A stretch of 64,000 bases of DNA from contig JAFAQY010000138.1 of assembly GCA_019261985.1 (NCBI GenBank), positions 1-64,000 on the forward strand. Direction: 5' to 3'. Of this stretch, positions 33,966-34,403 are shown piece after piece. The notes beneath the pieces are model-generated. The model had not been told where the DNA came from. It was given only the letters and a program-made list of their open reading frames with translations, and searched no databases. The DNA comes from Bryobacterales bacterium. GTDB lineage: Bacteria; Acidobacteriota; Terriglobia; Bryobacterales; Bryobacteraceae. Position 1 is the stretch's first letter; the number at the start of each line of letters is the position of its first letter. A program made the translations under genes and the position numbers.

Positions 33966-33992
33966 GTGTAAAAAACGAAGGGAGGTAGGAAG

Positions 33993-34403
33993 ATGAGTTT
34001 CGATTCCGCCGATGTTGCCCGGAACCGCGATTATTTTGCGGCCAAGATGCACGCCGAAAAACAACGCAATGACGTTTTGAGAGCCGTGGAAGGCGCGGGG
34101 CCCTACAACTTCGTATTACTCGACACGCGCGGGAAAGAGCCGTTTGCATCCGGGCACATTCCCGGGGCGTGGTGCATGGGCGACTTTGCCGAAACCGCCG
34201 CGCTGCTGCCGAAGGATAAAGAGATCGTGACCTACTGTTGGGGACACGATTGACAGCTCTCCGCGAAAGTGGCTCTGCAGTTGGCAGAGCAAGGTTTTCT
34301 GACTAAGGAGATGAACGTGGGATGGAAAGAGTGGACCGCTAACCGGCACCCGATACATCAGGAGAAACCGAGCGGGGTGAAGTGTAGCTGCTCGAAGGGC
34401 TGA
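33993..34403 (+). CDS. Rhodanese-like protein with in-frame UGA, candidate selenoprotein
   Basis: The frame opens at ATG 33993 behind a strong Shine-Dalgarno (GGAGG, 33981-33985). The first 86 codons encode half a rhodanese domain (FVLLDTRGKEPFASGHIPGA, then VTYCWGHD with Cys82). A TGA follows at 34251-34253. Without any frameshift the reading continues for 49 codons with the missing half of the fold (LSAKVALQLAEQGF, NVGWKEWT) to TGA at 34401-34403, with a C-terminal KCSCSKG. By homology the UGA replaces the second Cys of a Cys-x4-Cys loop, so it would be Sec87 in a 136-residue protein. A perfect 7-bp hairpin begins 18 nt after the UGA. A simple Cys-to-stop mutation cannot be excluded. Confidence 0.65.
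34272..34290 (+). promoter_or_regulatory. Candidate bacterial SECIS hairpin
   Basis: GCTCTGC pairs with GCAGAGC over seven base pairs around the loop AGTTG. The loop begins 25 nt after the in-frame UGA and has a G at its second position. As I recall the bacterial SECIS model, a short upper stem, a small apical loop with G in its first two places and 16-37 nt distance from the UGA are required, and all three are met. The following AAGGTTTT is not a canonical terminator. Confidence 0.55.

What the first reader, a model, noticed from the sequence alone, without database searches (positions are those of the whole stretch)
33993..34403. Rhodanese-like gene with an in-frame UGA and a SECIS-like hairpin: candidate selenoprotein
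The rhodanese fold is cut at TGA 34251-34253 and continues in the same frame for 49 clean codons with the missing half of the domain (LSAKVALQLAEQGF, NVGWKEW). The UGA sits at the place of the second Cys in a YCxxxxC loop (Cys82-x4-U87), a redox-suitable position. Exactly 18 nt later begins a perfect 7-bp hairpin with loop AGTTG, a G in the second loop position and 25 nt between UGA and loop, matching the bacterial SECIS rules as I recall them. No other lesion is seen in the gene and its Shine-Dalgarno is strong. Sec-containing rhodanese-type sulfurtransferases have, I believe, been noted in metagenomic selenoproteome work, but this short C-x4-U form with a C-terminal CSC tail appears little described.
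Basis: partly seen in the sequence, partly recalled or inferred. Interest (0 to 1): 0.88.

Follow-up and report, generated by a model that had tools for sequence, protein, structure and literature searches.

The report
Rhodanese-like selenoprotein family in Acidobacteriota
A soil-bacterium gene that looks broken by a stop codon is most likely intact: the stop is probably read as selenocysteine in a small sulfur-handling protein, since relatives keep the same codon at that place and nearly always the same RNA hairpin after it.

Summary
ORF 33993-34403 reads through UGA 34251-34253 (codon 87) as one rhodanese domain. Nineteen distinct sequences (window included), all Acidobacteriota, have UGA there (19 of 19); 18 of 19 keep at least the inner five pairs of the hairpin. 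Synonymous change is suppressed in the hairpin (pS 0.22, against 0.72 and 0.74 nearby) and the part after UGA is under purifying selection (pN/pS 0.16). Published bSECIS rules are met. More distant relatives often carry Cys at the site (35 of 61). SelA, SelB and a Sec-bearing SelD are present. The gap is tRNA-Sec: three searches missed it in this 138-contig assembly, though carriers G016 and G059 have it. Two NCBIfam rhodanese selenoprotein models score far below cut-off, and a 2026 list of 119 families has no CxxxxU rhodanese; its form 1, given only as 'UxxS', could overlap. Function (persulfide chemistry by Cys82 and Sec87 with a C-terminal CxC) is inferred. New variant of a known kind.

The parts
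33980..33985 (+). Shine-Dalgarno-like GGGAGG, 7 nt before ATG
   Evidence: read directly
33993..34403 (+). rhodanese-like selenoprotein gene, 136 residues with Sec87, stop TGA included
34236..34238 (+). codon of Cys82, catalytic-cysteine position of the rhodanese loop
   Evidence: aligned with the first Cys of YCWGPAC in BH2092 (3o3w/3nhv); catalytic role recalled from general knowledge of rhodaneses
34251..34253 (+). in-frame UGA, codon 87, proposed Sec
   Evidence: UGA in 19 of 19 distinct sequences; Cys at this place in 35 of 61 more distant loci
34272..34290 (+). bSECIS-like hairpin GCTCTGC-AGTTG-GCAGAGC
34383..34391 (+). C-terminal C-x-C (Cys131, Ser132, Cys133)
   Evidence: CxC in all 15 Sec-type rows of alignment A4

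Best explanation
This is a selenoprotein gene. UGA 34251-34253 is decoded as selenocysteine by SelB and tRNA-Sec, directed by the hairpin at 34272-34290 (about 0.9). The product is a single-domain rhodanese. The most likely chemistry, inferred and not shown (about 0.45), is that Cys82 takes up sulfane sulfur as a persulfide, that Sec87, at the end of the same active-site loop, attacks it to release sulfide or pass the sulfur on, leaving a Cys82-Sec87 selenenylsulfide, and that the conserved C-terminal CxC or a thioredoxin reduces that bond. In the Acidobacteriota sampled the close family has Sec wherever the site can be read, and many more distant relatives have C-x4-C at the same two positions.
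For: UGA at codon 87 in 19 of 19 distinct sequences from 30 loci. Synonymous identity 0.78-1.00 of pairs in each hairpin codon +7 to +12; the other degenerate codons examined lie between 0.22 and 0.58 except -5 (0.71), -2 (0.78), +1 (0.85) and +25 (0.75) (18 sequences). pS 0.218 in codons +7 to +13, against 0.724 for the other codons +1 to +28 and 0.743 for codons -19 to -1; pN/pS 0.161 after UGA outside the hairpin, 0.277 before it (16 sequences). Hairpin cells paired 95.2%, against 29-44% when slid (this control favours a structure read off the same sequences). bSECIS rules met. Sec/Cys exchange: Cys at position 87 in 35 of 61 distant loci; BH2092 of B. halodurans has YCWGPAC. SelA 411 bits, SelB 361 bits, near full length without stops; SelD with Sec in AAGUASK. 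In the window's genus SelB is in both carriers (G000, G016) and in 1 of the 12 non-carriers tested. Best fold matches 3nhv and 3o3w, Z 16.5, spanning both sides of the UGA. CxC tail in 15 of 15 Sec-type rows.
Against: tRNA-Sec was not found in the genome by Rfam model (ARAGORN names the eight best hits as other tRNAs), by the G016 gene as DNA query or by a model built from five relatives (34-36 bits in G000, at two tRNA-Ser genes, against 101-103 in G016 and G059). In some searches only 150 of 1086 and of 1897 first-look candidates were scored. No pair of the hairpin shows a double compensatory change and the shuffle control is uninformative (500 of 500 shuffles reach every observed value), so conservation, not covariation, carries the structure. 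Carrier G346 shows no SelB (75% complete), and outside the genus SelB does not predict the gene: 10 of 22 non-carriers have it. Three of the 19 sequences have further lesions (L083 an in-frame UAG, L091 frameshifts and a degenerate hairpin, L092 a late frameshift), and no start was found in frame for a fourth, L096. No expression or protein data.
Confidence: 0.88

Rival explanations
1. Nonsense mutation: the gene is a pseudogene cut at codon 87.
For: tRNA-Sec is missing from the assembly; three relatives carry other lesions.
Against: The same codon is UGA in 19 of 19 distinct sequences, at large synonymous distance (pS about 0.74), with purifying selection after it.
Confidence: 0.02
2. The 86-residue product that ends at the UGA is the functional protein and the rest is untranslated.
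For: TGA is also the stop codon of this gene, so it is not reassigned wholesale.
Against: The product would stop inside the active-site loop; codons after the UGA have lower pN/pS than those before it; the modelled fold and its matches use the second half.
Confidence: 0.02
3. The gene family is a selenoprotein, but this particular genome has lost tRNA-Sec and the gene is now silent.
For: Three negative searches for tRNA-Sec; 11 of 13 same-genus genomes tested lack SelB.
Against: SelA, SelB and a Sec-type SelD have no other stops; this gene shows no other lesion; the assembly is in 138 contigs.
Confidence: 0.06
4. It is a selenoprotein but acts mainly as a redox enzyme (disulfide or peroxide reduction), not in sulfane-sulfur chemistry.
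For: Most uncharacterized selenoproteins are thought to be redox proteins (PMC13188914, section 7 part 1); C-x4-U plus CxC could form a redox relay; no conserved neighbour points to sulfur metabolism.
Against: The nearest family and solved-structure matches are rhodaneses, with Cys82 at the sulfur-accepting position.
Confidence: 0.35

Closest known systems
TsoB, rhodanese/DsbD fusion-like selenoprotein (NF045694; 'rhodanese form 5', UxxxxU in PMC13188914)
   Same: rhodanese domain with the same motif spacing (U-x4-U against C-x4-U); 19 of the 22 members of A4, Cys rows included, match the model at E <= 0.001
   Different: 572-position model with two Sec and a DsbD-like part; ours is 136 residues with one Sec and scores 19.4 bits against a cut-off of 805. 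I did not see a TsoB alignment: that its second Sec sits at our site is inferred from spacing
rhodanese_LYCAU (NF041203; 'form 3', C-x-U)
   Same: best NCBIfam match (45.7 bits); short rhodanese with Cys then Sec in the loop; C-x-U genes also occur in Acidobacteriota (five loci by motif)
   Different: below cut-off 115; Sec is at Cys+2, ours at Cys+5
Rhodanese-like selenoprotein form 1 (WP_010941598.1, motif UxxS in PMC13188914)
   Same: our U87-Q-L-S90 also spells UxxS, so the Sec may be at the same place
BH2092 of Bacillus halodurans (PDB 3nhv, 3o3w)
   Same: closest solved structure together with lp_1913 (Z 16.5, rmsd 1.9, 118 aligned, tied with Z 16.1); YCWGPAC has Cys at both positions
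   Different: Cys instead of Sec; 26% identity in the structural alignment; the match ends at residue 125, before our CxC tail

Membership tests
bacterial selenoprotein | in-frame UGA conserved as UGA or Cys in homologues | tested here: met
   19 of 19 distinct close sequences UGA; 35 of 61 distant loci Cys, the others with another residue or a gap
bacterial selenoprotein | bSECIS: loop 3-9 nt, stem 4-16 bp, G in first two loop positions, 16-37 nt from UGA, MFE <= -7.5 kcal/mol (PMC13188914 Fig. 2 legend) | tested here: met
   5-nt loop AGUUG, 7 bp, G at second place, 25 nt, -11.2 kcal/mol
bacterial selenoprotein | SelA, SelB and SelD in the genome | tested here: met
bacterial selenoprotein | tRNA-Sec (selC) in the genome | tested here: inconclusive
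   not found in the 138-contig assembly; found in G016, G059, G012, G048 and G057
bacterial selenoprotein | selenium in the protein | not testable with these tools
   needs 75Se labelling or mass spectrometry
rhodanese domain (PF00581) | Pfam score over cut-off and rhodanese fold with the active-site Cys | tested here: met
   47.1 bits against 22.2; Z 16.5 to 3nhv; Cys82 aligned with the loop Cys
NF041203 rhodanese_LYCAU | score over the equivalog cut-off of 115 bits; C-x-U motif | tested here: not met
   45.7 bits; motif is C-x4-U
NF045694 TsoB | score over cut-off 805; two Sec and DsbD-like part | tested here: not met
   19.4 bits, 136 residues, one Sec
rhodanese selenoprotein form 1 (UxxS) | alignment with WP_010941598.1 | not tested

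The most novel reading that the evidence does not exclude
An undescribed, Sec-only subfamily of single-domain rhodaneses (C-x4-U plus C-terminal CxC), seen so far only in Acidobacteriota, in which the second, not the catalytic, loop cysteine is selenium: a selenium-driven persulfide reductase or transferase with its own reducing tail.
Probability: 0.4. Interest if true: 0.6.

Novelty: new variant of a known kind. Interest (0 to 1): 0.5.

Why it matters
Gene finders that take UGA as a stop would cut this gene at 86 residues or leave it as a pseudogene. If right, it adds a rhodanese subtype in which Sec sits five residues after the catalytic-position Cys, next to the listed forms with motifs UxxS, UxxG, CxU and UxxxxU, and it offers a clean Sec/Cys comparison (this family against C-x4-C relatives such as BH2092) for asking what selenium does in sulfane-sulfur chemistry.

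Tried and rejected
Chance hairpin: tested on all 1642 TGA of the window; the hairpin alone would be unremarkable, so the argument rests on conservation. Covariation: not available, the stem hardly varies. Neighbourhood: all-against-all comparison of ORFs of 80 aa or more at E <= 1e-20 over 22 stretches (12 kb of the window, L077-L093, L095, L096, L058, L059) gave no neighbour shared by more than three stretches; the three larger clusters were the gene itself or other reading frames over it, and the listed three-stretch clusters all join L059, L084 and L085, of which L059 and L085 are the same contig and L084 a close relative (only the 14 largest clusters were printed). tRNA-Sec: three negative searches in G000; stretches round selA, selB and selD also empty by ARAGORN, Rfam and model R1 (where the model did find the G016 gene). 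A look at the flanks of five tRNA-Sec genes found one shared ORF (L069 with L072, 44% identity), which I did not follow into G000. The first structure prediction, from 3 sequences, was poor (pLDDT 69.0) and not used. Plasmids gave 71 records, all under 60% identity (their residue at the site was not read); viral contigs gave six distant loci, all with C-x4-C.

Literature: seven searches; 'CxxxxU' with 'rhodanese' 0 papers, 'TsoB' with 'selenoprotein' and 'rhodanese' one. Haft and Tolstoy 2025 (PMC12013261), reference 64 and the cited source of TsoB, is not held; references 13 and 66 of the review were not read. Seen: PMC13188914 outline with abstract, section 5, section 7 parts 1 and 2 of 3, and passages; PMC9312934, PMC2398784, PMC1088965, PMC1794560, PMC12013277 and PMC5877670 passages only; other listed papers as search listings.

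Rows dropped before counts: L094 (the window again), L018 and L019 (the genes of L082 and L085), and 11 loci identical to others over a 310-base region, leaving 19. L093, L135 and L136 could not be scored at the site. L091 was left out of the codon table and of A3; L083, L091 and L092 out of the pN/pS sums, where L096 was kept; L083, L091, L092 and L096 out of A4, in which three rows (L084, L085, L086) were ended before their own stop. A3 holds L083 and L092 although broken. For SelB I tested 12 of the 21 same-genus non-carriers, leaving out the less complete ones. Genome searches scored at most 10 candidates per genome.

Full report
What is there. The window lies in a 6.49-Mb, 138-contig genome, 98.8% complete; the 17 named loci with a relative are Acidobacteriota draft genomes, and the phylum of the window is inferred from them. 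The gene at 33993-34403 has a good Shine-Dalgarno, codes for 136 residues if UGA 34251-34253 is read, and ends at TGA 34401-34403. Read through, it is one rhodanese domain (PF00581, 47.1 bits, residues 39-116). The UGA falls at YCWGHD-U, five residues after Cys82, and the protein ends in KCSCSKG.

Is the UGA meaningful? Searches of 61 genomes (the window's and 60 relatives), of 396 drawn evenly from the phylum, of 399 drawn from the class and of the named genome collection gave 30 loci with a readable site; many are the same genome under two names, and they reduce to 19 distinct sequences including the window. All 19 have UGA at the site. The profiles carried Cys there and the two peptide patterns do not include the site, so Cys forms were not selected against. 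The gene is rare: close matches in 3 of 61 genomes, in 3 of 396 of the phylum sample (G000, G346, G245) and, at E <= 1e-20, in 14 of 399 of the class, 13 of them with one TGA in the match while the fourteenth, G487, has only a match that stops short of the site. Identity to the window protein is 57-73% for the other 14 Sec-type rows of A4. Three of the 19 carry further lesions (L083, L091, L092) and no start was found in frame for L096; these may be decay or draft errors. L091's hairpin is also degenerate.

Selection. Over 16 sequences (L083, L091 and L092 left out), codons after the UGA outside the hairpin have pN/pS 0.161, against 0.277 in the 19 codons before it: the second half is under selection as protein. 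In codons +7 to +13 pS falls to 0.218, against 0.724 and 0.743 elsewhere; codon by codon the drop covers +7 to +12, with isolated high values at -5, -2, +1 and +25. L095 and L096, from other families of the phylum, keep the hairpin, L096 without its outermost pair. This is what an RNA signal embedded in coding sequence looks like.

The hairpin. Seven pairs, loop AGUUG, 25 nt from UGA to loop, -11.2 kcal/mol alone: the constraints of the bSECIS model printed in PMC13188914 (section 5) are met. In 18 sequences the inner five pairs are standard in all, the next fails in one and the outermost in five; the consensus fold finds the inner six. Three sequences have one-sided changes that keep pairing and none has a double change; the shuffle control cannot tell observed from shuffled, so covariation neither supports nor opposes it. 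By itself such a hairpin follows 8.1% of TGAs in this window, and the folding energy of the 50-nt stretch is ordinary in the window copy and in G016, lower than most shuffles only in G059 (z -0.36, -1.00, -2.42).

Machinery. SelB (361 bits, 1-578 of 581 positions) and SelA (411 bits, 1-366 of 367) have no stops. SelD has one in-frame TGA, in AAGUASK; Sec in SelD is listed as UxxK in PMC13188914 Table 1. tRNA-Sec was not found. The eight best Rfam loci in G000 are tRNA-Ser, Gly, Trp, Cys and Lys by ARAGORN. The G016 gene as DNA query gives only an 18-base match at E about 1. A covariance model of five tRNA-Sec genes scores 101-103 bits in G016 and G059, both in its training set, and 34-36 in G000, at two tRNA-Ser genes. 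ARAGORN confirms tRNA-Sec (TCA) in G016, G059, G012, G048 and G057, 5 of 7 relatives searched. An assembly gap is the simplest account, since selA and selB are intact and both Sec genes seen here (this one and selD) show no other damage, but it is not shown. Of 26 genomes tested for SelB, 3 of 4 carriers and 10 of 22 non-carriers have it; the carrier without it is 75% complete. Within the window's genus the split is sharper: both carriers, and 1 of 12 non-carriers tested.

What the protein is. The AlphaFold2 model from 22 sequences has mean pLDDT 95.4 (Sec modelled as Cys). Its best solved matches are BH2092 of B. halodurans (3nhv, 3o3w; Z 16.5, rmsd 1.9) and, tied, lp_1913 of L. plantarum (Z 16.1, rmsd 2.1) (Foldseek agrees). 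BH2092 aligns its two loop cysteines (YCWGPAC) with Cys82 and Sec87. Of 61 more distant loci, seven of them from the window's own genome, 35 have Cys at both places, 5 are C-x-U genes with Glu aligned at position 87, and 21 have other residues or gaps. The tail CxC is in all 15 Sec-type rows of A4 and in the Cys relative L100, and a CxC ends two viral-contig relatives, L137 and L138. No gene neighbour is widely shared.

How it likely works. Shown by computation: conserved UGA, conserved hairpin, selection on the second half as protein, fold prediction, Sec/Cys exchange at the site. Inferred from rhodanese chemistry (recalled): Cys82 accepts sulfane sulfur. Inferred from position: Sec87 resolves the persulfide, and the CxC tail or a thioredoxin reduces the resulting bond. 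A mainly redox role is the chief rival.

What is known. The 2026 inventory of 119 prokaryotic selenoprotein families and subfamilies (PMC13188914 Table 1) has five rhodanese forms: UxxS, UxxG, CxU, UxxG and UxxxxU. None is given as CxxxxU. Because the table gives only a short motif, form 1 (UxxS) could be the same position as ours (U-Q-L-S), and I could not compare the sequences. The two NCBIfam rhodanese selenoprotein models that match, NF041203 and NF045694, score far below cut-off. A text search for CxxxxU with rhodanese found nothing in the held open library, which lacks most subscription papers. I therefore call it a new variant of a known kind, with a real chance that it is a lineage of form 1.

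Noticed in passing
L030, L033, L038, L039, L114: C-x-U rhodanese genes with in-frame TGA in other Acidobacteriota genomes, like NF041203 by motif (not scored with that model). The match in L030 also holds a TAG.
   Followed up: no
L062 (G000 contig C53): The genome's SelD is itself of the Sec type (AAGUASK), a second Sec gene in this genome.
   Followed up: partly
L083, 4262-4321: A relative keeps UGA and hairpin stem but has UAG where the others have a Leu codon over the loop: draft error or decay.
   Followed up: no
L091 and L092: Two relatives keep the UGA but carry frameshifts; L091's hairpin is degenerate, as might be expected of a decaying copy.
   Followed up: no
whole genome G000: tRNA-Sec not found although selA, selB and a Sec-type selD show no damage.
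   Followed up: partly
window genus and family: SelB is absent from 11 of 13 same-genus genomes tested but present in 8 of 9 genomes of other genera of the family, which suggests loss of the trait in much of the genus.
   Followed up: no
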